DNA from: a virus
IMG/VR virus record: IMGVR_UViG_3300010885_088860
Coordinates: 1-58,532 of that record
Direction: 5' to 3' (one strand)
DNA length: 58,532 nt
Part shown: positions 198 to 57,212 of the stretch, piece after piece
Layout of the letters: each line of letters starts with the position of its first letter
How positions within the stretch are numbered: the stretch's first letter is position 1
The notes under the pieces: generated by a model
What the model was told of the DNA's origin: nothing
Databases searched by the model: none
Seen by the model: only the letters and a program-made list of their open reading frames with translations
Position numbers and translations under genes: made by a program

Positions 198-494
198 ATG
201 GATCTCGCCAGCGTGCCCAACATCAAGGCCATGCTGGCATTTCTGGCTGGGCTAGGATGCCAACCTAACCCTACGGTTGAATACGATGACCAATTGGCCT
301 GGCCCGGCCTGTATCGCAATGGCGTCATGTATCTGCGGTCTGCGCAGACACCAGACAGAGTCATAGTGCATGAACTGGTGCATGCCTGTCAGGAGCCGGC
401 CCTCAGCCGACAGGAATGGTTACAAAACGAAATACAGGCGCATCATATCGAACAGCTCTGGATGATTCGCCAGGCTGACCAAGAAAATCATTAG
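198..494 (+). CDS. Small HExxH-containing putative zinc metallopeptidase (98 aa)
   Basis: The product carries the motif HELVH at residues 58-62, the signature of zinc-dependent peptidases in which two His bind zinc and Glu is the general base. A Glu at residue 78 in the following helix (NEIQAHHIE) could be the third ligand, as in small gluzincins. The N-terminal half has a short amphipathic helix and a strand-like stretch leading to the motif, which is about the minimum size of a minigluzincin fold. It starts 3 bases after the small membrane protein and lies directly upstream of the pqqA unit. Function is unknown; it could be a structural protease-fold protein without activity. PqqF/PqqG-type PqqA peptidases have the inverted HxxEH motif, so this is not one of them. 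Confidence 0.75.
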   Translation: MDLASVPNIKAMLAFLAGLGCQPNPTVEYDDQLAWPGLYRNGVMYLRSAQTPDRVIVHELVHACQEPALSRQEWLQNEIQAHHIEQLWMIRQADQENH

Positions 495-516: not shown

Positions 517-546
517 ATGACAACCAGGTATCATTCAATACATAAT
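517..546 (+). promoter_or_regulatory. sigma70-like promoter of pqqA
   Basis: ATGACA (517-522; 5 of 6 to TTGACA) and CATAAT (541-546; 5 of 6 to TATAAT) are separated by 18 bases. The predicted start of transcription is near 553, about 40 bases before the pqqA start codon. No late-promoter motif is present in this gap, so expression probably uses the host sigma factor early in infection. Confidence 0.6.
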
Positions 547-552
547 TGTATT
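537..552 (+). repeat. Perfect inverted repeat over the pqqA -10 box
   Basis: AATACA (537-542), TAAT (543-546) and TGTATT (547-552) form a perfect 6-base inverted repeat around 4 central bases. It covers the proposed -10 element, so it could be an operator for a repressor, or simply a cruciform/A+T-rich promoter core. No binding protein is known to me. Confidence 0.45.
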
Positions 553-570
553 CGGATCAACGTCGATCCG
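553..570 (+). promoter_or_regulatory. 5'-end hairpin of the predicted pqqA transcript
   Basis: CGGATC (553-558) pairs with GATCCG (565-570) across AACGTC. The stem begins at the predicted transcription start. Hairpins at the very 5' end protect short bacterial mRNAs from 5'-end-dependent decay, so this may stabilise a single-gene message of about 158 bases. Confidence 0.5.
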
Positions 571-593
571 ATGTTTATGTTAAGGAGTAAACC

Positions 594-665
594 ATGTGGA
601 CCAAGCCCGCTGCCGCTGATCTTCGCTTCGGCTTCGAAGTCACCATGTACATCGCTGCTCGCTAA
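594..665 (+). CDS. pqqA: PqqA, ribosomal peptide precursor of pyrroloquinoline quinone
   Basis: The 23-residue product begins MWTKPAAADLRFGF and continues EVTMYIAAR. It matches the PqqA family in length, in the N-terminal MW-KPA, in DLR-GFE and above all in the E-V-T-M-Y core. In the 23-residue PqqA proteins, Glu15 and Tyr19 are joined by the radical-SAM enzyme PqqE with the chaperone PqqD and then become PQQ; both residues are present here at exactly those positions. AAGGAG at 582-587 lies 6 bases before the ATG. The gene has its own promoter, 5' hairpin and terminator and is flanked by phage genes. No pqqB-E, pqqD or pqqF gene is in the window, so the host would have to supply the enzymes. 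PQQ serves periplasmic methanol, ethanol and glucose dehydrogenases; a boost to host PQQ supply is inference. Confidence 0.92.
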   Translation: MWTKPAAADLRFGFEVTMYIAAR

Positions 666-686: not shown

Positions 687-710
687 GGGACGGCTTGCGC
701 CGTCCCTTTT
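687..710 (+). terminator. Rho-independent terminator after pqqA
   Basis: GGGACGGC (687-694), loop TTGC (695-698), GCCGTCCC (699-706) and TTTT (707-710): a perfect 8-base GC-rich stem followed by a T-run, 21 bases after the pqqA stop. It closes pqqA off as a separate transcription unit from the downstream early operon. Confidence 0.9.
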
Positions 711-768
711 GTTGTGTGTATTGAATCTAACCAAAAAGATGATAACTCATGGGAAACCCAGTTCCCTA

Positions 769-797
769 TTGACTCTTTGTATCAGAATCTTTATAAT
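769..797 (+). promoter_or_regulatory. Strong sigma70-like early promoter
   Basis: TTGACT (769-774; 5 of 6), 17-base spacer, TATAAT (792-797; 6 of 6). Predicted start near 804. A short inverted repeat GGGAA (751-755) / TTCCC (762-766) lies just upstream of the -35 box. It would drive the glycosyltransferase-gp33-gp59 operon with the host polymerase. Confidence 0.8.
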
Positions 798-876: not shown

Positions 877-1815
877 ATGAAAATTAAGCCGCCGGCTAAG
901 AAGGAAATGAGCAAGCTGCAGCAGCAGATGTTCCAGAACAATCCCCTGTTTATCAATAAACCCAAGGAAAAGCGCCCGCCCAGTCTGTTCATCGCCACGC
1001 CCATGTTTGGTGGCCAGGCCAACTACATGTACATGATCAGCCTGATCAATCTCCTGACCAAGCTGGGCCAGCATGGCATTCCCAGCATGTTTGAGATTGC
1101 CGCCAATGAGAGTCTGATCACCAAGGCTCGCAATATTCTGGTGGAAGGGTTTTTGAAGAGCAATGCCACGCATCTGCTGTTCCTGGATGCTGACCTGGGC
1201 TTTGACGGCGATGATGTCATTCGCATGATTCAGGCCGACCGTGACATCATTGGTGGCCAGTATGCCAAGAAGAAGATCAACTGGGATGTGGTGAAGCGTG
1301 TGGTCAATGCTGTACCCGACATCCCCGGCCCGCACATCAATGCCGTGATTGCGGAAAGCACCTTCCGTCCCATTGGTGACAGCCTGACCTTTGACATCAA
1401 TCAGCCTGTGGAGGTTGAGAGCATTGCCACGGGCATGATGTTGGTCAAGCGCGAAGTATTTGAGACCATGGCGCAGCGCATGCCCGAGATTGAAATCATC
1501 AGCGGCGGCAGCGAGACCATGGACCCCAAGACCATGACTCGCATCACAGACCCGCATCGTAAGAGCCATGCCTTCTTTGACACCAGCATTGACCCTGTGA
1601 CCAAGGCCTACACCAGCGAAGACTTTACTTTCTGCAAACGCTGGCGTGAACTGGGCGGCCAGGTGTTCCTGGCTCCCTGGACTCGTACTGTCCACGTTGG
1701 TACCTACGAATACGTCTGCGATTTGGGCGCCATTGCTCGCTATACCAGTCAGATGATGGATCATAGCCCACAACAGGCCAACGCCGACATCAACCCCGTG
1801 GAGGTCCCGGCGTGA
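877..1815 (+). CDS. Glycosyltransferase-like protein (GT-A type fold), 312 aa
   Basis: After a disordered basic N-terminus the protein reads LFIATPMFGG, then helices, then THLLFLDADLGF. The D-A-D triplet in a hydrophobic strand is the DxD-type metal/nucleotide-sugar site of GT-A glycosyltransferases. A second half with VESIATGMMLVKREVF and a C-terminal EDFTFCKRWRELGG resembles the acceptor-side elements (ED near the end, GM-L-KR) of family-2-like enzymes. The frame is open back to 709, but promoters at 769-808 and the GGAG at 863-866 (10 bases from ATG 877) favour 877 as the start; ATG 868 is too close to the GGAG. It overlaps the gp33 gene by 4 bases. The target is unknown: phage DNA bases, virion protein or host surface are all possible. 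Confidence 0.8.
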   Translation: MKIKPPAKKEMSKLQQQMFQNNPLFINKPKEKRPPSLFIATPMFGGQANYMYMISLINLLTKLGQHGIPSMFEIAANESLITKARNILVEGFLKSNATHLLFLDADLGFDGDDVIRMIQADRDIIGGQYAKKKINWDVVKRVVNAVPDIPGPHINAVIAESTFRPIGDSLTFDINQPVEVESIATGMMLVKREVFETMAQRMPEIEIISGGSETMDPKTMTRITDPHRKSHAFFDTSIDPVTKAYTSEDFTFCKRWRELGGQVFLAPWTRTVHVGTYEYVCDLGAIARYTSQMMDHSPQQANADINPVEVPA

Positions 1816-2162
1816 TCAAAGACGGTGTATCCGGCCAGGATGTTCTGGGCATCAAGCTCACCAGCAAGGAGGGTGAGCTTGTAGATAACCGCCTGGTGAG
1901 CCAGGGTGCCGAAGTAGTGCTTACCAATGAATTCCTGATTAGTCGTGAGTTCAGCAGCGCCAATGAGTTTAGTGTATGGGTGGAACAGCAACATGGCCAG
2001 TCTGGCCAGAGTCGCATGGACATCATCATTGGCTACTGCGCGGAACGAGACATCGACATCGAGGTCGTGGCGCCCTTGATCAATCGGGTACTCAAAGAGC
2101 AGATTCGTGTTGAAGCCGAGAACGCACACATGATGAAACCCACGGGACGTCTGCCACTTTGA
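1812..2162 (+). CDS. 33: Late-promoter transcription accessory protein, gp33-like (116 aa)
   Basis: T4 gp33 bridges the sliding clamp gp45 and RNA polymerase so that gp55-directed late promoters fire. The match here is in the C-terminal half: an acidic helix with FSVWVEQQHGQSGQSRMDIIIG, then a YCAERDIDIEVVAPLI helix pair and a LKEQIRVEAEN helix ending in RLPL, the arrangement I know from T4-type phage gp33 proteins. Length is close to T4 gp33 (112 aa). The start is GTG at 1812, in a GTGA overlap with the upstream stop, so it is translationally coupled to the glycosyltransferase. It directly precedes gp59. Many late promoters in this window give it clear targets. The first 50 residues are not recognised. 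Confidence 0.75.
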   Translation: MIKDGVSGQDVLGIKLTSKEGELVDNRLVSQGAEVVLTNEFLISREFSSANEFSVWVEQQHGQSGQSRMDIIIGYCAERDIDIEVVAPLINRVLKEQIRVEAENAHMMKPTGRLPL

Positions 2163-2164
2163 AC

Positions 2165-2755
2165 ATGACTGACTATGAAGCCTATCGCATGTATCTGGCG
2201 TTGAGGGCGCATTTTCAGACCGACGACTACGATGTCGTAGCCAGTCGGGGCCGTATCCGAGCCAGACGCAGCCAGTTTACTGGTGGCAAGGTCTATACCT
2301 TTGCGCGGCTGGCTCGGGACTACACAGACTCTGAGATCTGTAACTTCATGGTTGCCAACTTTGTGGCAGGTAACCACTGGGGTGGGGTGTTCGATGCCAG
2401 CGCCACGCAGAACTACACGGACTGGCAGCGACGCAACCAGAGTCTGCGCTATATGTTTCAGCAGGAGCTGCAGGCTCTGTTTAACGAAGCACAGGACCAG
2501 GGCGTGAACAACGTGTTCGCGGCCGAACCAGGACAGCATCCCCTGGTGGTGCGAGCCTATCTGCGGCGCACCATTGGCCCAGAAACTCTGGTCATACTGC
2601 AGGAGCTCACGGGCTGGGCCAATGACATGGAGCTGCCCCGTGACGTAGTCTGGCAGAATCTGCACCGCCTCATGATCAAGTATCGCCCCTTTGTACGGTT
2701 CGACCGAATCCAATTTCAGGACATACTCGATGAGTTCACTGCCCACCAAGCATGA
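2165..2755 (+). CDS. 59: Loader of the replicative helicase, gp59-like (196 aa)
   Basis: gp59 loads the gp41 helicase onto gp32-coated forks. The N-terminal domain aligns well with the T4 protein: YRMYLALRAHF, then YDVVASRGRIRARRSQF, then FARLARDYTDSEICNFMVANFVAGN and a W-G-V-F-D motif, followed by an all-helical C-terminal domain. Length is 196 residues against 217 in T4. ATG 2165 is two bases after the gp33 stop; an in-frame TTG at 2159 overlaps that stop (TTGA) and could be used instead, adding two residues. Placement with gp33 and gp32 fits the replication/late-transcription module. Confidence 0.88.
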   Translation: MTDYEAYRMYLALRAHFQTDDYDVVASRGRIRARRSQFTGGKVYTFARLARDYTDSEICNFMVANFVAGNHWGGVFDASATQNYTDWQRRNQSLRYMFQQELQALFNEAQDQGVNNVFAAEPGQHPLVVRAYLRRTIGPETLVILQELTGWANDMELPRDVVWQNLHRLMIKYRPFVRFDRIQFQDILDEFTAHQA

Positions 2756-3214: not shown

Positions 3215-4135
3215 ATGGCATTTAGCAGCCTATCCGATCTACGCAGCAACCGCGGTAACTTCGACAACCTCATGAAAGAGGTCGAGAAACTTGGTAACCC
3301 CCAGGGCAACAGCGATAGTCGCGACGACGAACGCGTCTGGAGCCCCGAGGTTGACAAGGCTGGCAACGGCTATGCCGTGATTCGTTTCCTGCCCGCACCC
3401 CGAGGTGAAGAACTGCCCTGGGTTCGAGTCTGGAGTCATGGCTTCCAAGGCCCCACGGGCAAGTGGTACATTGAAAACAGTCTCACCACTATCGGCAAAC
3501 CCGACCCCGTGAGCGAACTCAACAATGAACTTTGGAACAGCGGCAGCGAAGCCAACAAGGAAATCGCTCGCAAGCAGAAGCGCCGTCTGAACTATGTGTG
3601 CAATGTGCTGGTTCTGGAAGACCCGGCTCATCCGGAAAACGTGGGCAAGGTCAAGCTGTTCAAGTTTGGCAAGAAGATCTTTGACAAGATCAAGGATGTC
3701 ATGCAACCGCAGTTCCAGGACGAAAAGCCCGTGAATCCCTTTGACTTCTGGGCTGGTGCGGACTTCAAGCTCAAGATTCGCAAGGTCGAAGGTTATCGCA
3801 ACTACGACAAGAGCGAATTTGGCACGGTTCGTCCCCTGCATGAAGATGATGCCAAGATCGAGGCCGTCTGGAATCAGCAGCATAGTCTGCAGGACTTCCT
3901 GGATGCTCGTCACTTCAAGAGCTACGAGGAACTCAAGCGCAAGCTCGACACCGTGCTAAGCGGGGTTCCGGCAGCGGTGCGTCATGCCGAAGAAGTTGAT
4001 CTCGAGGTTCCGGCTCAGCCACGAGCCAGTGCCCCGGCTCGGACTGCTCAGACTCAGAGCAAGCCTGCTGCGCCGGCCTATGACGATGATGACGATACCC
4101 TGAGCTACTTTGCCAACCTGGCAGCCGACGACTAG
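3215..4135 (+). CDS. 32: Single-stranded DNA-binding protein gp32 (306 aa), zinc ligands lost
   Basis: gp32 coats ssDNA in replication, repair and recombination and recruits gp59. The core aligns with T4 gp32: WSPEVDKAGNGYAVIRFLP, VRVWSHGFQGPTGKWYIEN, then NYVCNVLVLEDPAHPENVGK, KLFKFGKKIFDKI and F-W-G-A-D-F-LKI. The N-terminal basic cooperativity segment (LSDLRSNRGNFDNLM) and an acidic C-terminal tail rich in Asp are present. The T4 zinc site (His64, Cys77, Cys87, Cys90) keeps only the His; the three Cys positions read Ser, Val and Leu in my alignment. I recall the same loss in cyanophage gp32. AAGGAG stands 7 bases before the ATG. Its stop overlaps the stop of the convergent tape-measure gene in a shared CTAG. 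Confidence 0.95.
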   Translation: MAFSSLSDLRSNRGNFDNLMKEVEKLGNPQGNSDSRDDERVWSPEVDKAGNGYAVIRFLPAPRGEELPWVRVWSHGFQGPTGKWYIENSLTTIGKPDPVSELNNELWNSGSEANKEIARKQKRRLNYVCNVLVLEDPAHPENVGKVKLFKFGKKIFDKIKDVMQPQFQDEKPVNPFDFWAGADFKLKIRKVEGYRNYDKSEFGTVRPLHEDDAKIEAVWNQQHSLQDFLDARHFKSYEELKRKLDTVLSGVPAAVRHAEEVDLEVPAQPRASAPARTAQTQSKPAAPAYDDDDDTLSYFANLAADD

Positions 4136-23795: not shown

Positions 23796-26700
23796 ATGAA
23801 TTTTAATCAGGCCCCGTATTTCGACGACTTCGACGAACAGAAAAAGTTCTATCGTGTGCTGTTCCGACCCGGTGTGGCAGTACAGACTCGGGAAGTCAAT
23901 CAACTGCAGAGCATACTGCAGAATCAGATCACCAAGTTTGGTGACCACGTTTTCAAGAATGGCAGCATGGTCATACCGGGCCAGGTCAACTACAATGACA
24001 AGCTGCAGTATCTCAAGATCACCAGCACCAACCTGGGCAGCGAAACCCTGGACTGGTTGGTGGACAAAACACTGACCGAAAATAGCAACGGCACCGGTGT
24101 GCGGGCCCTGGTCATTGCTGCCTTGGCCGCCACCAACACCGACCCCACGACGCTGGTGCTGCTCTACACACAGAGCAATCAGGACGTGGCTGGCGTCAGC
24201 GATCTGCAGGTGTTTGATGCCAGCAGCACCGTGTATGTTCTGGAAAATCCGCTCAAAACCCTCACGGTAAGCACTGGTAACGACATCAATGGTCGCAGCG
24301 TGGCCGCAGCCGTGCAGGCCGGTGTTTACTACTACAATGGTTATTTTGTTAGTGTTGACAGTCAGGTTGCTGTGGTCAAGAAGTATGCCGACGAACTCAC
24401 GGACATCAATGCTCGGCTGGGCCTGCAGTTTACTGAGAGCATCATCACGGCCGATGACGATGTTTCACTCTATGATAACGCTGCCGGAACACCCAATGCA
24501 GCAGCACCGGGCGCGCATCGCTACAGCATCGATGCCAATTTTATTCAGATTGGCCTAAATGACACACCTGAAAACTTTTTTGAATTGATGCGAGTGCAGG
24601 ACGGTGTTCTGCAGAACTTAGTCAATGCCAGTCAGTACAACATTCTGGAAGAAACCCTGGCACGCCGCACCTTTGACGAAAGCGGCAACTATGTTGTAGA
24701 CAACTTTAAGTTTGAGCTGCGCGAGGCCCGCAACAACAATCGAGGCGCCTGGAGTGCCACCAACGCCTATCAGGTAGGTGACTATGTGCAGGGTACGGCA
24801 GGACGTTATTTTGAGTGTCTGCAGAGCGGTACCAGCACCAGTAACGAGCCCACTCAGTTCAGCGACACCACTGCCGACGAAACCGTGGTAATCACTGACG
24901 GAACTGTGCGTTGGCGCTATACCACCAATGTGCTAAGCAATCGAGGACTAAGCCAGGCTGGCGACAGCAGCAACCTCGTGGCCGTGTATGGACTGGGCAA
25001 GGCCTATGTTCAGGGCTATGAAGTTGATAAACTCACCAACAGCAACATCACCATACCCAAGGCGCGAAACACTCGCAGTCTCAACAACACCACGATCTAT
25101 ACACCAGTAGGCAACTACGTCTGGTTGGACAAACGCTACATGAGTGGTGTTATCGATGTCAGCAGCGGGCCCACGGTTAATTTGTTTGACCGAACCTCGG
25201 CTGCACGCAGCGGTAACCGATTTGGGTTTGGCCAGCACGTGGGTACAGCTCGAACTAACTGGGTAGAGTCCGATGGGCGTGGCGGCGTGCGTGTTGGCTT
25301 AAGCGATATTCAAATGAAGGCCGGCAAGAGCCTGGACCGCGATGCCAACTCCCTGGTGGTCTACGACAGTGTTACTGGTACCACCGTGACAAGTTTTACG
25401 CTGACCGGCAACGTCAAGTATGCCGGCGGCAGCACCAGCAGCTACCTGCAGATTTCTGGTCTGATGTTCAGTACCAGCCAGGGGGCCACAACCATGGCCG
25501 TGACCGGCCAGCTTACGGCCTATCTGAGTGAAATCAGTGTGGGCGACAGTGTGACCTTTGGTAACAGTAGCCATGCCACGACCTGTAGCTGGACAGTGGT
25601 CAGCGTGGGCGGTAACACTTCGCTGACGCTCACTGGGCCGCCCATTACCTTGGCCGCGGCTGCCACGACTTCGATTTTTATTCGTGCTGCTACCCAGGTT
25701 GTTTTGGGTGCGGGCACAGGGCTTGCCACTCGATTCCAGAGTGAATATCGAGTGGGCGACACCATGTTCATTGGTAGCACCAACACGTCATTGGGTACAG
25801 TTGTTAGCATCATCAGCGAAACCCGCATGCTGGTAAGCAGCGTGCTGGGCCGGCAGATTGCCAACACCAGCCACGGTGCCTACTATTCGGGTCGCAACGC
25901 TAGCTTTGTCGGTGACGTCTGGGAAAACTATCAGCTAGGCATCAATGCTCGCAAACTCACTGGTCTGTTCCAGATCCAGGACTACACGGGCGGCACCACG
26001 TTGGTGCAGGCGCATGGTGCAATTCGCATTCAGGGCACCAACGATGCCAGATTGTTAAGTGAAACCGTCATTAACGACTTCGTGGACATCAACAACAATC
26101 GGATCTTCATCACCAAGATCAGCAGCAACAGTGTGGCCTATGGTGTATGTCTGGACAGCGCGGTCTCAGGCAGCACCACGCAGTATCCGGCGTTCAGCGT
26201 CAGCAATTCCGTTGTTGACAGTCGTTACAACACCCTGCTGTTCCCCGTGGCTAGTTCGCCAGTTAGCAGCATTGTTGATAACATATACACGGTGTACAAG
26301 ACACAGCAGGTTGCTGTTACCATTGGTACCAGTGGCGTTACAGTAACTCTGGCCGCGGCCAGTGGTAATGCCGCGGCCGAACAGCTGGCCAGCTCGGACC
26401 CCAATGCATTCTTCGTGGCACAGGATAGCGTTTCTACCCTGAGTGGTCCCATCACAGTCAACAGTGTCAACGTAGCAGGCCTCAACGTCACGCTGTCGGT
26501 CAACAGTACGTTTAGCAGCGCCTCGGTGCGAGTCATCTACCCCGTGGTGCGAGCCGCGGCCTCGGGTACGGTACTGGGTCGGGTTCGCAGCAAGACGCTG
26601 ACTCTGGGCGTGAGTGATGAATTCCTGACCACCAGCGTGGTGGCGCAGCGCGAGCTGGTGCTGAGCCGCACCGACATTTACCGTGTGGCCAAGATCCTGC

Positions 26701-29700
26701 AGGCCACAAGCATCGTGGCCGCCTGGACCACGAGCGTGCAGACCACAGCTCGAGACATCACTAACCAGTACACGTTGGATCCGGGTCAGCGCGACACCTA
26801 TTACGATCTAGGCCGGCTTACCCTTCGCCCTGGAATCAGCACACCGCAGGGCAGCATCAAGGTGTTCTACGACTACTTTGAACATGGTGCCGGAGACTTC
26901 TTTGCTCGTAACAGCTACAATCCTGTCAACGTACCAGCAGAATTGATTCCGGTCTACAATGGTGTTGTGAATCTGGGCAATGTTCTGGACTTCCGCACCA
27001 GCGTCAACAGCAGCACTGGTTTGTTGCAGACTGCTGCGCCGCCACGGTTTGGCACTAACTTCGTGGCTGACATCAGCTTCTATCTGGGCCGCAAAGAAAA
27101 AATCTTCCTGGACCGCACCGGCGAATTCTACAGCGTGGCCGGTGCCAGCGATCTAAATCCCGTGGAGCCCTTGGCCACAGCCAACAACAACAGCATACAT
27201 CTCAACACCATCACCCTCAAGCCCTATACCAATTCGGCTGAATATCCAGACGTCGCGGTCAAGAGTATAGACAATCGTCGCTACACCATGCGTGATATCG
27301 GCGGCATTGAACGTCGAGTGGTGAACCTGGAAGAAGCCACGGCCCTGAGTCTGCTGGAAACCAAGACCAGTGCGCTGCAGATTCGAGACAATCTGGACAG
27401 TACCCTGGAGCGCTACAAGACCGGCTTCTTTGTGGACAACTTCAGTGATGCCAGCAACGCCGACCACACCAACGATGGTCGTTTCAGCCTGGATGATCGT
27501 ACTCGCACCATATTGCCGTACGTGGAATACTTTAGTTTGCCCCTGGTGGAAAAGATCAACTACCTGGACGCCGTGACCACAGCTTCGGAATTCAATCCCG
27601 TGCGCCTGGCTCGACTCAACGAAAACTATGCCATCACTGGCGATTTGCTGACCCTGAACTACACCACCAGCGTGCTGCTGGAACAGAGCCTGGCTACCAC
27701 CAGCATCAGCGTGGCGCCTTTCTTGACTGCCACCTTCCTGGGTCGCATGAAGATTGTGCCCGACCAGGACATCTACGAAAACATCACCACGGTAAACCAG
27801 GTCATTGGCAGCGAAACTAACAATACCATAGCCGAAGCCGTTGCCGCCTACAGAGCCACGGGTAACTGGCGACCGTATCGCATCGCTGTAGTAGAAGGTC
27901 AGCGGCTTGTGGGGACCGACCGCACCGCAGAACTGATTCCGTTCTGTCGCGCCAATACTATACTCATGGTGGCCAAGGGGCTCAAGGCCAATGGTCGTCA
28001 CTATGTGTTCTTTGACGATATCAACGCTGCCAATTATGTCACTGGTGCCATGAAGTTTACCTTTGACAGCATGCCCATACTGGACTTTGACGGTGTTCGC
28101 GCCGCAGTCAAAAATGAGGTGCCGCGTCGTCGTAGCGCGTATCAGACCCTGGATGTGCAGGAAGTAGTCCGAGCCATTTTGGTGCGGCGACGTCGTCGCC
28201 GGCGTCGTTGGGCCTGGCGCTATGAATTTGGTTGGTTCCGCCGTACCTGGTCGCCGGCTTCGAGGGAAACCACACTACCCAGCGCCGCCACTCGCGACTC
28301 CTACAAACAGGCTCTGGGCGCTGGTCCCAGCGTATGGTATTACGAGGGTCGTAGCCTGGTAGGCACTGCCGTGGCCGCACATCAGGACGGCACCACGCTG
28401 TATCTGGTGAACTGCCGAGGTAAACTTAGTCCGTCGTTCCTGCGTGCTCAAGCCAGTCAAAGTTATACCTATGGTGGTACTTTCTACGTCAGCGTGGATA
28501 GTGTAGATCCCAAGTATGTGCCCAGTAATCCTGTGACCGTGGCCAGCGCCTGCACCAGCAACACAGCCGGCGAGTTGTTCAGCGACGCACAGGGCACCGT
28601 AGTGGCGCTATTTGATCTACCCGATACTGACGATGTCAAGTTCCTAAGTGGCCGACGTCCTGTTGTAATTACAGACCACCCCAGCAACGATCCGGACCTC
28701 TGGACCAGTCGCAGCGAAGCCACGTATTTTTGCGAAGGTTTCGATGTCACCATCACCAAGAATTTCATCAGTACCAAGGTGTTTGTGGCTCGACCCTATG
28801 ACCCCATCGCGCAGAGCTTCAAGCTGCCCACGCAGTATGGAAACGGGGCCTTTATCACCGACATCGATGTCTACTTCCAGAACAAACCCGTGGCAGAACA
28901 GGCTCCGGTCATGATGGAGGTTCGAACCTGCGACAGCACGGGCCGGCCCAGCGCCACGGAGATTCTGCCGGGCAGCGAGGTCATCAAGTATCCCAACGAT
29001 GTCACCATCGATGCTACTCGAGGTCAGGCGGCCACGAAGTTTACCTTTAAGAACCCCCTGTACCTGTTGCCCGAAAAGAACTATGCCTTCGTGCTCAAGA
29101 GCGACACCAAGAACTATCGAGTATGGATTGCCACCCTGGGTCAGCTCGATGTCAATACGCCCACCAGCAGCTACAGTACTCAGGCCACGCTGGGCAGCTT
29201 GTTCAAGTCTCAGGATGGTACACTTTGGACCGAGGACCAACTCAGCGACATTAAGTTCCGCGTCAACCGAGCCGTGTTCAACACTGCGAACGCGGGCGCG
29301 CGAGTGCATGTTGTGAATCACAACATTGAGAACGCTCAGCTGCCCAGCAATCCCCTGACCTTTGTGCATGGCAGCAACAAGATTCGGGTTGGCCAGCGCA
29401 ATCACGGCATGAGCGTGGGCGATGTCACCAGGCTGTATAGTGCCTATTGGAACGCTCAGTATGCTGCCAACCAGGCCGTGACCATCAACGGCATCCCCGT
29501 GAGCGAAATCTTTGGTAGTTATGTGAGCAGTAACGTCACTAGCTTCCAGCCCTTGCCCACGGACCCCCGACTCACGGTCAGTGATGTCACCATGGACACC
29601 TATACCATTACCACTACTACGGTTGCTAACCTGGGGGCCAATGCTGTAACCGGTGTCACCAACATCACGGGCGGTGGTGATGACCTTGTTGCTCAAAGCA

Positions 29701-30833
29701 ACGTCCTGTATCACGTTGCCAAGCCCCGTGCCACGGTGTTGATGAGTAAACCCACCACACTGACCATGCAGGGCAAGATGTTGAAAGGATTCACCTATGA
29801 CACTGATGCCAGCGCTCCAGCCTATCCTTATACCTGGACCACCCTGGACCTGAACATCAATGCCGATACCCTGTTGGACAGCAGTTCCATTATACTTACT
29901 GACGTCAACGAGTACGACCGAGTAGATACCAGTGTGAACATCACCGCCGGCGGAACCGGTAGTATCTGGACCGATAGTTTTATTGGTATTCTGAACCTCA
30001 AGACTACTACGGACCATGTTAGCCCGGCCGTGGACATGAGTACCTTTAATCTGGATCTCATACAGCATCGCATCACCAATCCAGGCTATAGTTCTCGTTA
30101 TCCTACTCCTTTGCCCAGCATTGGTAGCGTCAGCAACTTAATTTTAATGAGCAACATTGCCACCAGCAACACCACGATTTGGTTCGATGGCTCCTTGGAA
30201 ACCATCAACACCAACACACTGGGGTTGTTCAGCAATGTTACTCCGGGCAAGTATCTCATGGTCAGTGGCAGCACAGTTTCTGCCAACAATTACATGACCA
30301 CGGGCCTTTTGGTGCTGAGTGTGACACCCGATGGTCAGACCATTACGGTTAGCGGTAACCTTACTTCGACGGCCGGTGGCGATGCAATTTACATCTGGCA
30401 GCTTGAAGATTTTATCGAAGAGACCACGGACGATGCTGCTTCGGGTGAGAGCAAGTACATCACCAAACAAGTGGATCTGCAGAACCCCGCGGCTCAGCTC
30501 AAGATGATTGTGGAGGTTAACTGTCCCAGCTCCGCGGACTTCGATGTGTTCTATCGAACTGGCGCTGCTGGTACAGATCTTACTGATACCATATGGCAAC
30601 GCTTTGTGGCACCCTTGCAGAGCAATCCGCTGAGCAGCTATGCCACCATTGTTAAGAGTGAAAATCGCAATGAGTTCACCGACGTAGAATTCAATATCAG
30701 TAACTTTGACAGCACGGGTACACCGCGCGATCTGAATCCCTTTACGGCCTTCCAGGTCAAGATCGTGATGCGCAGCAGCAACGCGGCTCGGGTGCCCAGG
30801 TTCCGTAATCTGCGAGTCATTGCACATGCTTGA
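23796..30833 (+). CDS. Giant baseplate structural protein, DUF4815-like (2345 aa)
   Basis: The N-terminus NQAPYFDDFDEQKKFYRVLF, RPGVAVQTREVNQLQSILQN, QITKFGDHVFKNGSMVIPG is the signature of the DUF4815-type virion proteins that follow gp8 in cyanophage-like myoviruses, where T4 has gp9-gp10-gp11. The protein probably links wedge and fibres. Further on are Ser/Thr-rich beta modules (about 550-710), a helical part with IGGIERRVVNLEEATALSLL (about 1165), and carbohydrate-module-like C-terminal domains (DIDVYFQNKP, AFQVKIVMRSSNAARVPRFR). Residues about 1464-1471 are eight consecutive Arg followed by an aromatic-rich stretch. One uninterrupted frame of 7 kb shows it is intact. The exact role of each domain is not known. 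Confidence 0.85.
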   Translation: MNFNQAPYFDDFDEQKKFYRVLFRPGVAVQTREVNQLQSILQNQITKFGDHVFKNGSMVIPGQVNYNDKLQYLKITSTNLGSETLDWLVDKTLTENSNGTGVRALVIAALAATNTDPTTLVLLYTQSNQDVAGVSDLQVFDASSTVYVLENPLKTLTVSTGNDINGRSVAAAVQAGVYYYNGYFVSVDSQVAVVKKYADELTDINARLGLQFTESIITADDDVSLYDNAAGTPNAAAPGAHRYSIDANFIQIGLNDTPENFFELMRVQDGVLQNLVNASQYNILEETLARRTFDESGNYVVDNFKFELREARNNNRGAWSATNAYQVGDYVQGTAGRYFECLQSGTSTSNEPTQFSDTTADETVVITDGTVRWRYTTNVLSNRGLSQAGDSSNLVAVYGLGKAYVQGYEVDKLTNSNITIPKARNTRSLNNTTIYTPVGNYVWLDKRYMSGVIDVSSGPTVNLFDRTSAARSGNRFGFGQHVGTARTNWVESDGRGGVRVGLSDIQMKAGKSLDRDANSLVVYDSVTGTTVTSFTLTGNVKYAGGSTSSYLQISGLMFSTSQGATTMAVTGQLTAYLSEISVGDSVTFGNSSHATTCSWTVVSVGGNTSLTLTGPPITLAAAATTSIFIRAATQVVLGAGTGLATRFQSEYRVGDTMFIGSTNTSLGTVVSIISETRMLVSSVLGRQIANTSHGAYYSGRNASFVGDVWENYQLGINARKLTGLFQIQDYTGGTTLVQAHGAIRIQGTNDARLLSETVINDFVDINNNRIFITKISSNSVAYGVCLDSAVSGSTTQYPAFSVSNSVVDSRYNTLLFPVASSPVSSIVDNIYTVYKTQQVAVTIGTSGVTVTLAAASGNAAAEQLASSDPNAFFVAQDSVSTLSGPITVNSVNVAGLNVTLSVNSTFSSASVRVIYPVVRAAASGTVLGRVRSKTLTLGVSDEFLTTSVVAQRELVLSRTDIYRVAKILQATSIVAAWTTSVQTTARDITNQYTLDPGQRDTYYDLGRLTLRPGISTPQGSIKVFYDYFEHGAGDFFARNSYNPVNVPAELIPVYNGVVNLGNVLDFRTSVNSSTGLLQTAAPPRFGTNFVADISFYLGRKEKIFLDRTGEFYSVAGASDLNPVEPLATANNNSIHLNTITLKPYTNSAEYPDVAVKSIDNRRYTMRDIGGIERRVVNLEEATALSLLETKTSALQIRDNLDSTLERYKTGFFVDNFSDASNADHTNDGRFSLDDRTRTILPYVEYFSLPLVEKINYLDAVTTASEFNPVRLARLNENYAITGDLLTLNYTTSVLLEQSLATTSISVAPFLTATFLGRMKIVPDQDIYENITTVNQVIGSETNNTIAEAVAAYRATGNWRPYRIAVVEGQRLVGTDRTAELIPFCRANTILMVAKGLKANGRHYVFFDDINAANYVTGAMKFTFDSMPILDFDGVRAAVKNEVPRRRSAYQTLDVQEVVRAILVRRRRRRRRWAWRYEFGWFRRTWSPASRETTLPSAATRDSYKQALGAGPSVWYYEGRSLVGTAVAAHQDGTTLYLVNCRGKLSPSFLRAQASQSYTYGGTFYVSVDSVDPKYVPSNPVTVASACTSNTAGELFSDAQGTVVALFDLPDTDDVKFLSGRRPVVITDHPSNDPDLWTSRSEATYFCEGFDVTITKNFISTKVFVARPYDPIAQSFKLPTQYGNGAFITDIDVYFQNKPVAEQAPVMMEVRTCDSTGRPSATEILPGSEVIKYPNDVTIDATRGQAATKFTFKNPLYLLPEKNYAFVLKSDTKNYRVWIATLGQLDVNTPTSSYSTQATLGSLFKSQDGTLWTEDQLSDIKFRVNRAVFNTANAGARVHVVNHNIENAQLPSNPLTFVHGSNKIRVGQRNHGMSVGDVTRLYSAYWNAQYAANQAVTINGIPVSEIFGSYVSSNVTSFQPLPTDPRLTVSDVTMDTYTITTTTVANLGANAVTGVTNITGGGDDLVAQSNVLYHVAKPRATVLMSKPTTLTMQGKMLKGFTYDTDASAPAYPYTWTTLDLNINADTLLDSSSIILTDVNEYDRVDTSVNITAGGTGSIWTDSFIGILNLKTTTDHVSPAVDMSTFNLDLIQHRITNPGYSSRYPTPLPSIGSVSNLILMSNIATSNTTIWFDGSLETINTNTLGLFSNVTPGKYLMVSGSTVSANNYMTTGLLVLSVTPDGQTITVSGNLTSTAGGDAIYIWQLEDFIEETTDDAASGESKYITKQVDLQNPAAQLKMIVEVNCPSSADFDVFYRTGAAGTDLTDTIWQRFVAPLQSNPLSSYATIVKSENRNEFTDVEFNISNFDSTGTPRDLNPFTAFQVKIVMRSSNAARVPRFRNLRVIAHA

Positions 30834-52992: not shown

Positions 52993-54906
52993 ATGGCTTT
53001 CCAAGTTTCGCCTAATGTCCTGGTTCAGGAACGCGACGTTAGCTTGTTTGTGCCGCAGGTTGCCACCACGGCTGGCGCTTTCGTCGGACAATTTAACTGG
53101 GGTCCTGCCGAGGTTTTTGTAACTCTGGACAGCGAAAAGACGCTGTTCAATACCTTTGGTCGCCCCGACAGTAGCGTGGCCAAGTACTGGTTTACCGCAG
53201 CCAACTTCCTGAGCTATGGCAACAACCTGCAGGTCAGCCGCGTCTGCGACACCGTGGCTCGCAACAGCGTGGCCGCGGGCACTGCAGCGTTGGTTCGTAA
53301 CGAAGACAACTACAACGGCGTCAACGGCTATACCGCACCTACCCTGACTAGCACCGAATTCGTGGCCAAGTATCCGGGTACCCTGGGCGATAACCTCAAG
53401 GTCAGTATGTGCGACTACAACAGCTACCAGTTTACCGCCACGATGAGCAGTGTAACTGCCACCAGCGCAGGCGTGGCTGCACTGAGCCGCCCGGTACCCA
53501 AGGGTAGCTGGCTGGAAGTCACCCTGAGTGGCAGTACCTATCGATTCCAGACCACGACCGATGCTGCCCTGAGTGCCACTACACTGACCTTCACCAACAA
53601 CACAGGCCTGACCTCGAGCAGCAGCGCTTCTGCTACAGTACTCTGGGAGTTCTGGGATCAGGTTGAGAGTCGCCCCAGCAACACTCGCTTCGCGCTGAGC
53701 AAGACCGGCGCTAGCAGCAGTGCTACAATCTACGACGAACTGCATGTCGTGGTGGTGGACGAAGATGGTGGCATCACTGGTACTGCCGGTACTGTCCTGG
53801 AAAAGTGGCAGGGCCTAAGCAAGGCCAGCGACGCTGTTGGCACCGACGGCACCAACATCTATTATACTGCCTTCCTCAATCTCAACAGTAGCTGGATCTG
53901 GTACGGTAGCCATACTGCTCTGACTGGCGCGGCTCAGATTGCCTGGGGCAGCGCAGTACCGGCAGCCAGCACGGGCTTCACCACCATGAGTCAGGTGCTG
54001 AGCCGCAGCCTGAGCAGCGGTGTCAATGTCACCGCCACGGACGGACTCATGCAGACCGAATATGCCAAGCTGGCCAATGCCGAACTCTACGACGTCAGTT
54101 TGATGCCTGTAGTAGGTGTGTCCACAGACAATGCCACGGCTCGTTGGGTTGTTGACAATGTTGCCGATGTGCGTCGCGACTGCGTGGTGTTCACCAGCCC
54201 CAGCACCAGCACACTGATTACTGCTCAGGCCGTGGTCAATGACCGCAACACCAACTTCAACAAGGACAGCACCTATGCTGTCATGGACAGCGGCTGGAAG
54301 TATCAGTATGACCGCTACAACGATACCTATCGCTGGATACCCCTGGCCGCAGACACCGCGGGCCTGTGTGTGCGCACCGATCTCGTGGCCGACCCCTGGT
54401 ACAGCCCGGGTGGTTATACCCGCGGCCAGGTCAAGAATGTTGTGCGTCTAAACTGGAGCCCCAACAAGACCGATCGTGACAACCTGTATCGTTTCCAGGT
54501 CAATCCCATAATCAACCAGCCGGGATTTGGCACCATACTGTTCGGCGACAAGACGCTGACCCAGAAGCCCAGTGCTTTTGACCGCATCAATGTGCGTCGA
54601 CTGTTCATTGTGCTGGAAAAGGCCATTGCTACCGCAGCCAAGTTCCAGCTGTTTGAGTTCAATGATGCCTTTACCCGCAGCCAGTTTGTGGCTCTGGTGG
54701 AACCCTTCCTCCGCGACGTTCAGGGCCGCCGAGGCATCACGGATTTCCGAGTAGTGTGCGACGACACCAACAACACAGCCGAGGTCATTGACCGCAACGA
54801 ATTCGTGGCCGATATCTATATCAAGCCCGCTCGAAGCATCAATTTCATCACGCTGACGTTCGTGGCCACGCGCTCGGGCATCAATTTCGAAGAAATCGGC
54901 GCCTAA
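52993..54906 (+). CDS. 18: Tail sheath protein gp18-like (637 aa)
   Basis: gp18 forms the contractile sheath. The N-terminal FQVSPNVLVQERDVSLFVPQ and GAFVGQFNWGPAEVFVTLDS, then LFNTFGRPDSSVAKYWFTAA, and the C-terminal RINVRRLFIVLEKAIATAAK with FEFNDAFTRSQFVALVEPFL and RGITDFRVVCDDTNN are diagnostic of the family. The middle is an insertion domain typical of T4-like sheaths. T4 gp18 has 659 residues. A strong AAGGAG lies before the ATG and gp19 follows after 22 bases. Confidence 0.97.
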   Translation: MAFQVSPNVLVQERDVSLFVPQVATTAGAFVGQFNWGPAEVFVTLDSEKTLFNTFGRPDSSVAKYWFTAANFLSYGNNLQVSRVCDTVARNSVAAGTAALVRNEDNYNGVNGYTAPTLTSTEFVAKYPGTLGDNLKVSMCDYNSYQFTATMSSVTATSAGVAALSRPVPKGSWLEVTLSGSTYRFQTTTDAALSATTLTFTNNTGLTSSSSASATVLWEFWDQVESRPSNTRFALSKTGASSSATIYDELHVVVVDEDGGITGTAGTVLEKWQGLSKASDAVGTDGTNIYYTAFLNLNSSWIWYGSHTALTGAAQIAWGSAVPAASTGFTTMSQVLSRSLSSGVNVTATDGLMQTEYAKLANAELYDVSLMPVVGVSTDNATARWVVDNVADVRRDCVVFTSPSTSTLITAQAVVNDRNTNFNKDSTYAVMDSGWKYQYDRYNDTYRWIPLAADTAGLCVRTDLVADPWYSPGGYTRGQVKNVVRLNWSPNKTDRDNLYRFQVNPIINQPGFGTILFGDKTLTQKPSAFDRINVRRLFIVLEKAIATAAKFQLFEFNDAFTRSQFVALVEPFLRDVQGRRGITDFRVVCDDTNNTAEVIDRNEFVADIYIKPARSINFITLTFVATRSGINFEEIGA

Positions 54907-54928
54907 GACCTAAAAGGAGAAACATAAC

Positions 54929-55537
54929 ATGGCAGAACGGTCAATTTTTAACGTTGATCAATTCAAGGCCGCAATGGTTGGTGGCGGTGCTCGCGCCAAC
55001 CAGTTTTTTGTGACGCTGAACTTCCCCAGCTATGTTACGCTGGGTGGGGCCGCGGCGGCACAGGCAGCCTTCTTGGTCAATGCCACCACACTACCGGGCA
55101 GCACGGTTAACCCCACGGTTGTACCCTATCGCGGTCGTGAAGTCAAGTTTGCGGGCGAACGTACCTTCACGCCCTGGACCGTCACGGTGTTGAACGATGT
55201 CAGCTTCAACATTCGTAACAGTCTGGAAGCGTGGATGGAGGGCATGAACGGCCTGGTCAACAACAACGGCCGCACCAACCCTCGCGACTATCAGGTCAAC
55301 CTGAGCGTGACCCAGCTGGATCGCAACAACAACCCGCTCAAAAGCTACACCCTGGCCAGCGCCATGCCCGTGGAGCTCAGCGAAATCGGCCTGAACTTCG
55401 GCGAAAATGACACCATTGAAACCTATACCTGTACCTTTGTCTATCAGCACTACACCACTACCCTGGACAGTGCACTGAGCCTGGGCAACACCGTGAACCA
55501 GGTCGCCAACGCTGGTCGCGGTATCTTTGGTATCTAA
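54929..55537 (+). CDS. 19: Tail tube protein gp19-like (202 aa)
   Basis: The tube fold is clear: FNVDQFKAAMVGGGARANQF with FFVTLNFPSYV, AAFLVNATTLPGSTVNPTVV, PYRGREVKFAGERTFTPWTV, FNIRNSLEAWMEGMNGLVNN and YQVNLSVTQLDRNNNPLKSY followed by VELSEIGLNFGENDTIETYT. It is longer than T4 gp19 (163), mostly through a C-terminal tail that may line or coat the tube. An AAAAGGAGA ribosome binding site precedes the ATG. It is co-transcribed with gp18. Confidence 0.96.
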   Translation: MAERSIFNVDQFKAAMVGGGARANQFFVTLNFPSYVTLGGAAAAQAAFLVNATTLPGSTVNPTVVPYRGREVKFAGERTFTPWTVTVLNDVSFNIRNSLEAWMEGMNGLVNNNGRTNPRDYQVNLSVTQLDRNNNPLKSYTLASAMPVELSEIGLNFGENDTIETYTCTFVYQHYTTTLDSALSLGNTVNQVANAGRGIFGI

Positions 55538-55556
55538 GGTTCAGGACAACTAGATC

Positions 55557-57212
55557 ATGGCTGATTTTACATTATTTGGTTACACTCTGACCAAGCAGAA
55601 GCCTGAGCCCAAGGGGGCTCAGAGCTTCGTTATGCCTCAGGACGACGACGGCGCACAAAACATCAATGCCAGTGGATTCTTTGGAACCTACCTGGACATT
55701 GACGCCACGGCCAAGAGCGAAAATGACCTCATCAATCGATACCGAGACATAGCTCTGTATCCGGACTGCGACAGCGCCATCGAAGACATTGTCAACGAGG
55801 CCGTGGCGGCCCAGGACAACGAAGCCGTGGTGCAGGTTAATCTGGACAAGGTTAACCTCAGCGCCAATGTCAAGCGCATGATTGAAGAAGAGTTTGGCAA
55901 CATTCTCAAGTTGCTGGACTTCAACAGCAAGTCACATGACATCTTCAAACGCTGGTATGTAGACGGTCGCATCCCCTATCACAAGATTGTGGATACCAGC
56001 CGACCCAAGCAGGGCATACAAGAATTACGCTACATTGACCCTCGCAAGATCAAAAAGGTCCGCAAGGTCAAGAAGCAAAAGGACCCCAAGACTGGCGTTG
56101 AATTCATTCAGGAAATTCAGGAATTCTACGTCTATAACGAAAAGGGGCTAGTGGCCAGCACCAACAACTACAACAGCACCGGCACGGGCATACAGATCGC
56201 GCCCGATGCCATAGCCTACTGCACCAGCGGCTTGATTGATCTGGACAAGAACATGGTGCTGGGCCATCTGCACAAGGCCATCAAGGTTGTGAACCAGCTT
56301 CGCATGGTGGAAGACAGCCTGGTCATATATCGCATGAGCCGGGCGCCCGAGCGTCGCATCTTCTACATCGATGTGGGCAATTTACCCAAGGCCAAGGCCG
56401 AGCAGTATGTGAAAAGCATCATGGACCGTTATCGCAACAAGGTCACCTATGATGCCAGTACCGGAGAGATTCGGGACGAAAAGAAGACCCTGAGCATGCT
56501 GGAAGATTTCTGGATGCCGCGTCGCGAAGGTGGCAAGGGCACGGAAATTACCACGCTCGAGGGTGGTCAGAATCTGGGTGAAATCAATGACATCAACTAC
56601 TTTCAGAATAAGCTCTATCAGAGTCTGAACGTGCCCGCGAGTCGTATGCGACCCGATGCCGGCATGAACTTTGGTCGCCAGGCCGAGATCACCCGAGACG
56701 AATTAAAATTCAGCAAGTTTGTGAGCCGGCTTCGCAAGAAGTTTGGCGAGCTGTTCGACGACCTGTTGCGCACTCAGCTCCTGCTCAAGGGCATCATGAA
56801 CGAGCAGGACTGGGATGCTATTCGCGAGGATATCTACTACGACTTCACGCAGGACAGCTACATGTCCGAGGCGCGCGAAGCCGAGATCATGCGCAACCGC
56901 ATCGACTTGCTCAATCAAATTCAGCCCTATGTGGGCACCTACTTCAGCCGCGAGTTTGTATACAGCGACATCCTGCAGCTGACCGAAGAAGATCGTGAAC
57001 GCATACAGAAGGAAATCGATGCCGACACCGAGCTGCAGCAGCAGATGTCTGCGCAGCAGACCGGCCCGGGGTCAATGCAGGCCGCGGCGCTGAGCAACGA
57101 AACCGGCGGTGCGGCCCCGAGCACTGATGCTGGTCCGCAACCCTATGACCCCAACAATCCGCAGGTAGAACAGCGGTTGATAAATAAATTCATGTTAATC
57201 AAGGAAGCCTGA
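55557..57212 (+). CDS. 20: Portal vertex protein gp20-like (551 aa)
   Basis: gp20 forms the dodecameric portal that starts head assembly and through which DNA is packaged. Diagnostic segments: NDLINRYRDIALYPDCDSAI, EDIVNEAVAAQDNEAVVQVN, FNSKSHDIFKRWYVDGRIPY, QGIQELRYIDPRKIKKVRKV, LGHLHKAIKVVNQLRMVEDS with LVIYRMSRAPERRIFYIDVG, and YFQNKLYQSLNVPASRMRPD. Length fits T4 gp20 (524). The C-terminal 60 residues are Gln/Ala/Pro-rich, and a late promoter for gp67 lies in the last codons. Confidence 0.97.
   Translation: MADFTLFGYTLTKQKPEPKGAQSFVMPQDDDGAQNINASGFFGTYLDIDATAKSENDLINRYRDIALYPDCDSAIEDIVNEAVAAQDNEAVVQVNLDKVNLSANVKRMIEEEFGNILKLLDFNSKSHDIFKRWYVDGRIPYHKIVDTSRPKQGIQELRYIDPRKIKKVRKVKKQKDPKTGVEFIQEIQEFYVYNEKGLVASTNNYNSTGTGIQIAPDAIAYCTSGLIDLDKNMVLGHLHKAIKVVNQLRMVEDSLVIYRMSRAPERRIFYIDVGNLPKAKAEQYVKSIMDRYRNKVTYDASTGEIRDEKKTLSMLEDFWMPRREGGKGTEITTLEGGQNLGEINDINYFQNKLYQSLNVPASRMRPDAGMNFGRQAEITRDELKFSKFVSRLRKKFGELFDDLLRTQLLLKGIMNEQDWDAIREDIYYDFTQDSYMSEAREAEIMRNRIDLLNQIQPYVGTYFSREFVYSDILQLTEEDRERIQKEIDADTELQQQMSAQQTGPGSMQAAALSNETGGAAPSTDAGPQPYDPNNPQVEQRLINKFMLIKEA
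57179..57186 (+). promoter_or_regulatory. T4-type late promoter GATAAATA
   Basis: GATAAATAAATT lies in the last codons of gp20, 27 bases before the gp67 ATG. Confidence 0.55.

What the first reader, a model, noticed from the sequence alone, without database searches (positions are those of the whole stretch)
594..665. A phage-encoded PqqA, the peptide precursor of PQQ
A 23-codon gene between phage genes encodes a peptide with all the residues that define PqqA, including Glu15 and Tyr19 in E-V-T-M-Y, which are joined to make PQQ. PqqA is a consumed substrate, one per PQQ molecule, while PqqB-E are catalysts. A phage that wants more PQQ for host methanol, alcohol or glucose dehydrogenases needs to bring only this peptide. 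This would be an auxiliary metabolic gene of 72 bases, below the size cut-off of most gene finders, so it could be widespread and overlooked. The peptide match is seen directly; the metabolic role is inference. Alternatives: a decoy peptide for PqqD/PqqE, or a host gene captured without function.
Basis: partly seen in the sequence, partly recalled or inferred. Interest (0 to 1): 0.93.

Follow-up and report, generated by a model that had tools for sequence, protein, structure and literature searches.

The report
Phage-carried PqqA, the PQQ precursor peptide
A virus of probably methanol-using bacteria carries a 72-base gene for the small peptide that its host consumes to make the cofactor PQQ; the same gene, missed by most annotations, sits in at least 185 other viral sequences and in nine records of cultured methylotroph viruses, so it looks like a widespread way to top up the one ingredient that runs out.

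Summary
Bases 594-665 encode MWTKPAAADLRFGFEVTMYIAAR, a full PqqA (Pfam 41.2 bits, cut-off 21.1; NCBIfam equivalog 39.2, cut-off 20) in a T4-like phage fragment, with a Shine-Dalgarno site and its own terminator. The peptide is identical to PqqA of a betaproteobacterial family (5 of 5 genomes); against one of them the DNA differs by 7 synonymous and 0 amino-acid changes. In a search that did not require Glu15 or Tyr19, 120 of 120 viral contigs kept both, all at 23 codons. PqqB-E were never found beside viral pqqA; PqqE, PqqC and PQQ-dehydrogenase were absent from the viral records searched. Among 50,697 phage records the peptide occurs in nine Methylophilales/Methylophilaceae phages of unrelated lineages and one spring phage, mostly unannotated. 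Methylotroph hosts carry up to nine pqqA copies. Best reading: the phage supplies the consumed substrate to the host's PqqB-E. Decoy or dead capture is unlikely. Phage pqqA was already reported from Lake Baikal in 2020, so the gene is not new; its breadth, substrate-only form and apparent movement between phages seem to be. The metabolic benefit is untested.

The parts
594..665 (+). pqqA: 23-aa PQQ precursor peptide MWTKPAAADLRFGFEVTMYIAAR (Glu15, Tyr19)
   Evidence: identical to host-family PqqA
582..588 (+). Shine-Dalgarno AAGGAGT, 5 nt before the ATG
   Evidence: read from sequence; all 120 viral pqqA of the unbiased search have such a site
687..716 (+). intrinsic terminator, 8-bp stem GGGACGGC/GCCGTCCC with tail TTTTGTTGTG, starting 22 nt after the stop
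   Evidence: terminators follow 47 of 144 viral pqqA against 6% of other long-ORF ends
517..546 (+). sigma70-like promoter candidate (ATGACA-18-CATAAT, 10 of 12); consensus match only
552..571 (+). 7-bp stem-loop TCGGATCAACGTCGATCCGA in the leader, possibly a 5' mRNA hairpin (inference)
198..494 (+). 98-aa ORF with an HELVH (HExxH) motif, upstream neighbour; no PHROG match
877..1815 (+). 312-aa phage protein (PHROG 1574, unknown function), downstream neighbour
   Evidence: E=6.1e-40
1812..2162 (+). gp33-like late promoter transcriptional regulator
   Evidence: PHROG 254 E=6.5e-12
2165..2755 (+). gp59-like DNA helicase loader
   Evidence: PHROG 269 E=1.2e-46
3215..4135 (+). gp32-like single-strand DNA-binding protein
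   Evidence: PHROG 224 E=3.2e-117
52993..57212 (+). tail sheath (52993-54906) and portal protein (55557-57212) that mark the contig as T4-like

Best explanation
This is a substrate-only auxiliary metabolic gene. The phage expresses a short pqqA message that ends at its own terminator. The 23-aa peptide, identical to the host's, is taken up by host PqqD and PqqE, Glu15 and Tyr19 are cross-linked, and host proteases, PqqB and PqqC finish PQQ. Each PQQ uses up one PqqA while PqqB-E are reusable, so during infection, when host transcription is likely to fall, PqqA is the part that runs out. Supplying it keeps PQQ-dependent methanol/alcohol dehydrogenase loaded and the host's energy and carbon supply running. 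Shown: PqqA identity, translation signals, purifying selection, invariant reactive residues, no companion enzymes in the records searched, association with methylotrophs, PqqE and a PQQ-dehydrogenase in the candidate host. Inferred: expression, processing, a rise in PQQ and benefit to the phage.
For: Family models. Unbiased search: 120 of 120 viral contigs keep E15 and Y19, all 23 aa, all with a Shine-Dalgarno site. Codons free of the search pattern: dN/dS proxy about 0.10, and 0.013 for EVTMY. Peptide identical in 5 of 5 genomes of one betaproteobacterial family; DNA against L178 differs by 7 synonymous and 0 nonsynonymous changes. That MAG has a PQQ-alcohol/methanol dehydrogenase (E=2.1e-211) and a partial PqqE (E=3.5e-113). 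PqqB-E beside none of 147 viral pqqA and none of 45 more loci, against 44 host loci with PqqB in the same search. No PqqE above cut-off in 49 viral records, no PqqC in 47, no PQQ_2 dehydrogenase domain in 50. Only Methylophilales/Methylophilaceae phages and one spring phage hit in 50,697 phage records, also with a Pseudomonas-type query. Hosts amplify pqqA themselves: 5-9 copies in many methylotrophs. Reported by others: purified PqqA added to Gluconobacter extract was 70-80% converted to PQQ, and a methanol-grown PQQ producer has five pqqA copies (both from PMC9851590).
Against: No expression, processing or fitness data for any of these phages. Host pqqA is already multi-copy in many methylotrophs, so one more gene may add little unless phage expression is high. 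The link between window and host family rests on one short gene. The window is incomplete, so a dehydrogenase elsewhere in that genome is not excluded. PQQ is a stable cofactor and is not shown to limit an infected cell. The hosts of the second viral PqqA type are unknown.
Confidence: 0.8

Rival explanations
1. Decoy: the peptide occupies PqqD/PqqE and lowers PQQ synthesis, shutting down host respiration.
For: A short peptide with the binding part of PqqA could act this way; no in vivo data exclude it.
Against: Glu15 and Tyr19 are kept in 120 of 120 viral sequences although the search did not ask for them; the EVTMY codons are the most constrained; the window peptide equals the host family's own PqqA, so it should be processed rather than block.
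Confidence: 0.05
2. Passenger: a host gene captured by chance, without function in the phage.
For: The gene is tiny, and the window pqqA is up to 67 of 72 bases identical to host copies.
Against: Recurs in at least 185 IMG/VR contigs and several unrelated cultured lineages, with purifying selection, start sites and terminators enriched about sixfold.
Confidence: 0.04
3. The peptide makes PQQ, but the benefit is not methanol oxidation: for example PQQ as an antioxidant or for another PQQ enzyme.
For: The second viral PqqA type ([10 protein letters not shown]) belongs to unidentified hosts; the candidate host MAG has more than one PQQ-enzyme match.
Against: The known hosts of carrier phages are methylotrophs whose core energy step is PQQ-dependent methanol dehydrogenase; phages of other PQQ makers (Pseudomonas, Klebsiella) lack the gene.
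Confidence: 0.09
4. The viral contigs are host DNA misfiled as virus.
For: One phage record, Acinetobacter phage MD-2021a, is such a case: it carries pqqBCDE and other housekeeping genes.
Against: Phage isolates with deposited complete genomes carry pqqA without PqqE or PqqC; the window is packed with T4-like genes.
Confidence: 0.01

Closest known systems
pqqA in Lake Baikal virus population VP_266 (Coutinho et al. 2020, PMC7678222)
   Same: PqqA encoded by a T4-like virus assigned to Methylophilaceae, with the same proposed role: more PQQ for methanol oxidation.
   Different: That population also encodes methanol dehydrogenase. None of the 50 pqqA-bearing records tested here does, including complete phage genomes and (as far as sequenced) the window. 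The passages read treat one population and do not describe recurrence, residue conservation or the substrate-only logic. The VP_266 sequence was not compared directly here.
Cellular pqqA of methylotrophs (Methylophilaceae, Methylophaga and relatives), often several copies per genome
   Same: Same 23-24 aa peptide, often with its own terminator, often away from pqqBCDE.
   Different: Cells also hold pqqB-E; the viral gene has no partner enzymes.
psbA as cyanophage auxiliary gene (from general knowledge, not tested)
   Different: psbA encodes a reaction-centre protein that is damaged; pqqA encodes a peptide substrate that is converted into a cofactor.

Membership tests
PqqA (PF08042 / TIGR02107) | Score above the curated cut-offs | tested here: met
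   41.2 against 21.1 and 39.2 against 20 bits
PqqA (PF08042 / TIGR02107) | Glu and Tyr four residues apart in E-x-x-x-Y, the source of PQQ | tested here: met
   E15 and Y19 in the window; 120 of 120 viral relatives without being required
PqqA (PF08042 / TIGR02107) | Cross-linked by PqqE with PqqD and converted to PQQ | not testable with these tools
   Peptide identical to host-family PqqA, which makes it likely
Cellular pqq operon | pqqB-E next to pqqA | tested here: not met
   None near any of 147 + 45 viral pqqA loci tested; no PqqE above cut-off in 49 and no PqqC in 47 viral records
Viral auxiliary metabolic gene | Host-derived metabolic gene in a true viral genome | tested here: met
   T4-like genes around it; host-identical peptide; present in cultured phage genomes
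Viral auxiliary metabolic gene | Expressed in infection and changes host metabolism | not tested
   No transcript, proteome or metabolite data at hand
Baikal-type pqqA plus methanol dehydrogenase virus (VP_266) | Methanol dehydrogenase in the same viral genome | tested here: not met
   No PQQ_2 match in the window or in 49 other pqqA-bearing records; the window is a fragment

The most novel reading that the evidence does not exclude
Carrying only the consumed precursor peptide of a cofactor is a general strategy of phages that infect PQQ-dependent bacteria. pqqA moves between unrelated phages as a single gene, sometimes with the host's terminator, is kept in nearly all methylotroph phages, and sets the PQQ supply of infected methylotrophs in lakes and oceans.
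Probability: 0.6. Interest if true: 0.78.

Novelty: new member of a known kind. Interest (0 to 1): 0.62.

Why it matters
Methylotrophs oxidise methanol in lakes and seas. If most of their phages carry a 72-base gene that feeds PQQ synthesis, a main viral influence on C1 metabolism has been missed because the gene lies below gene-finder cut-offs; in Melnitz and in a spring podovirus an antisense ORF is annotated in its place. It is directly testable, since cultured phage-host pairs exist (Venkman and Melnitz on H5P1, P19250A on IMCC19250, MEP301 and MEP401/402 on FZCC strains).

Tried and rejected
The first degenerate pattern had a wrong gap and found nothing; the corrected one worked. 'Acinetobacter phage MD-2021a' was set aside as a mislabelled bacterial contig: full pqqBCDE, ppk and fur around it. 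Counting independent lineages by any shared gene failed, because single linkage joins nearly everything; a stricter network gives over a dozen groups but was not refined. The host of the second viral PqqA type ([10 protein letters not shown]) was sought in 369 genomes of one class without a match. A tree of 23-aa peptides was not attempted, for lack of signal. Decoy and passenger readings were considered and rejected on residue and codon evidence.

Full report
Observation. Bases 594-665 (+) encode MWTKPAAADLRFGFEVTMYIAAR and a stop. Pfam PqqA matches over its whole length (E=1.6e-10, 41.2 bits, cut-off 21.1), as does the NCBIfam equivalog TIGR02107 (E=4.2e-10, 39.2 bits, cut-off 20). AAGGAGT stands 5 nt before the ATG. 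A strong terminator (8-bp stem, TTTTGTTGTG tail) begins 22 nt after the stop, and a promoter-like match and a leader hairpin precede the gene. The flanks are T4-like phage: gp33-, gp59- and gp32-type genes downstream, and end protector, head closure, baseplate, sheath and portal genes in the rest of the window. The record is a 58.5-kb linear viral fragment. A second contig, L283, is the same phage at 99.93% over 4,433 bp with an identical pqqA.

Host. The exact peptide occurs in MAG L178 ('Betaproteobacteria bacterium WB4_1_1427', 66% GC over the locus) and, on a family-wide search, in 5 of 5 genomes of that family, one to three matches each. Against L178 the DNA differs at 7 of 72 bases, all synonymous (neutral chance of that about 3e-5). 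The best host copy matches 67 of 72 bases, and the copy in another phage contig, L278, 68 of 72. The L178 genome has a PQQ-alcohol/methanol dehydrogenase match (E=2.1e-211) and a partial PqqE (E=3.5e-113); PqqC was found in two of the five genomes, which are drafts. A member of this family is therefore the likely host, but the link rests on this gene alone.

How widespread. That makes at least 185 contigs, some over 200 kb. Among 50,697 phage records, tblastn with the window peptide, a phage consensus and a composed Pseudomonas-type peptide gives the same real set each time: Melnitz (four records), Venkman, MEP301, MEP401, MEP402, P19250A and one podovirus from Manatee Spring. The only other records with a nearly full-length match, 'Acinetobacter phage MD-2021a', come from bacterial DNA: the 144-kb one holds the pqqBCDE operon, ppk and fur. 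In Venkman, P19250A, MEP301 and MEP402 no gene is annotated at the place; in Melnitz and the Manatee phage an ORF on the opposite strand is annotated instead. Relatives of MEP402 that infect Roseobacter (CRP-4, CRP-5) do not hit. 2,395 phage records have a homologue of the window's gp32, yet of T4-like phages only Melnitz hits with PqqA. Whether every Methylophilales phage has it is not known: MEP431-434 and phiMB624-A are in the taxonomy but could not be located.

Selection and residues. In the search free of E15 and Y19, all 120 sequences keep both, all are exactly 23 aa, and all have a Shine-Dalgarno site. Among 107 unique genes, codons not fixed by the pattern give a dN/dS proxy of 0.10, EVTMY 0.013, and the variable codons 6-8 0.50. 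The caveat is that positions 1-5 and 11-14 were partly fixed by the pattern, and that the scan returned the first 120 hits, not a random sample. A peptide under this constraint is very likely translated and used as a substrate; a decoy would not need both reactive residues.

No enzymes. PqqB-E (Acinetobacter queries) are beside none of 147 viral pqqA loci and none of 45 further loci, while the same search finds PqqB in 44 host loci. No PqqE above its cut-off is in 49 viral records (one weak radical-SAM match of 27.7 bits), no PqqC in 47, and no PQQ_2 dehydrogenase domain in 50. The isolates' deposited complete genomes were searched whole; most IMG/VR records are fragments.

Movement and position. 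At DNA level (megablast) Venkman and the Manatee phage share only an 85-bp stretch that is pqqA with its start region. The window shares only pqqA with the stretches held of the 94-kb and 215-kb contigs behind L278 and L280. The stretch after pqqA in L278 resembles that of host copies L325 and L326 (GCGACGCG, then CCCGCGCC...GGCGCGG and a T run), which suggests capture of pqqA with its terminator. In T4-like carriers pqqA lies near gp33/gp59/gp32: upstream in the window, L279, L256 and L264, and just after gp32 in L040 and L066. Terminators follow 47 of 144 viral pqqA against 6% of other long-ORF ends.

Mechanism. PqqA is consumed one for one while PqqB-E are catalysts (established pathway knowledge). 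Methylotrophs amplify pqqA alone: 5-9 copies in several Methylophilus, Methylobacillus, Methylotenera and Methylophaga genomes. PMC9851590 reports five copies in a methanol-grown PQQ producer and cites 70-80% conversion of added PqqA peptide to PQQ by a Gluconobacter extract. So the simplest reading is substrate supply to host enzymes during infection. Expression, processing and benefit are inferred, not shown.

Prior work. Coutinho et al. 2020 (PMC7678222) reported pqqA with methanol dehydrogenase in a Baikal Methylophilaceae virus and proposed the same role. A 2026 reservoir study lists viral pqqA, pqqD and pqqE (PMC13188868). Papers on Melnitz and the MEP401/402 lineage do not mention viral pqqA, and full-text searches found no other report; subscription papers and preprints were not searched. 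The gene is thus a new member of a known kind; its breadth, residue constraint, substrate-only form and apparent mobility seem unreported.

Noticed in passing
CAKLQF020000010.1 (locus L124): A record named 'Acinetobacter phage MD-2021a' holds pqqABCDE, polyphosphate kinase and fur: a bacterial contig filed as phage.
   Followed up: yes
L285-L321 and L004, L010, L013, L017, L018: A second viral PqqA type (e.g. [23 protein letters not shown]) makes up most of 42 contigs, some of 200-340 kb, with no pqqB-E nearby; hosts unknown.
   Followed up: partly
G054, G057, G069, G076 and others: Methylotroph genomes carry up to nine near-identical pqqA copies, most far from each other.
   Followed up: partly
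L123:7961-8056 and L127:2067-2195: Deposited annotation calls an antisense ORF where the conserved frame is pqqA.
   Followed up: yes
window 198-494: 98-aa ORF with a VIVHELVHACQE (HExxH metallopeptidase-like) stretch next to pqqA, without a PHROG match.
   Followed up: no
L278, pqqA at 1315-1386 (- strand) and its downstream side: Viral pqqA followed by a terminator region similar to that of host pqqA copies, as if captured together; the same 94.5-kb contig has two pqqA copies.
   Followed up: partly
window 23796-30833 and 31399-38925: Two very large ORFs (2,345 and 2,508 aa) among the tail genes, not examined.
   Followed up: no
window 769-797: Near-consensus sigma70-like promoter (TTGACT-17-TATAAT, 11 of 12) between the pqqA terminator and the next gene.
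   Followed up: no
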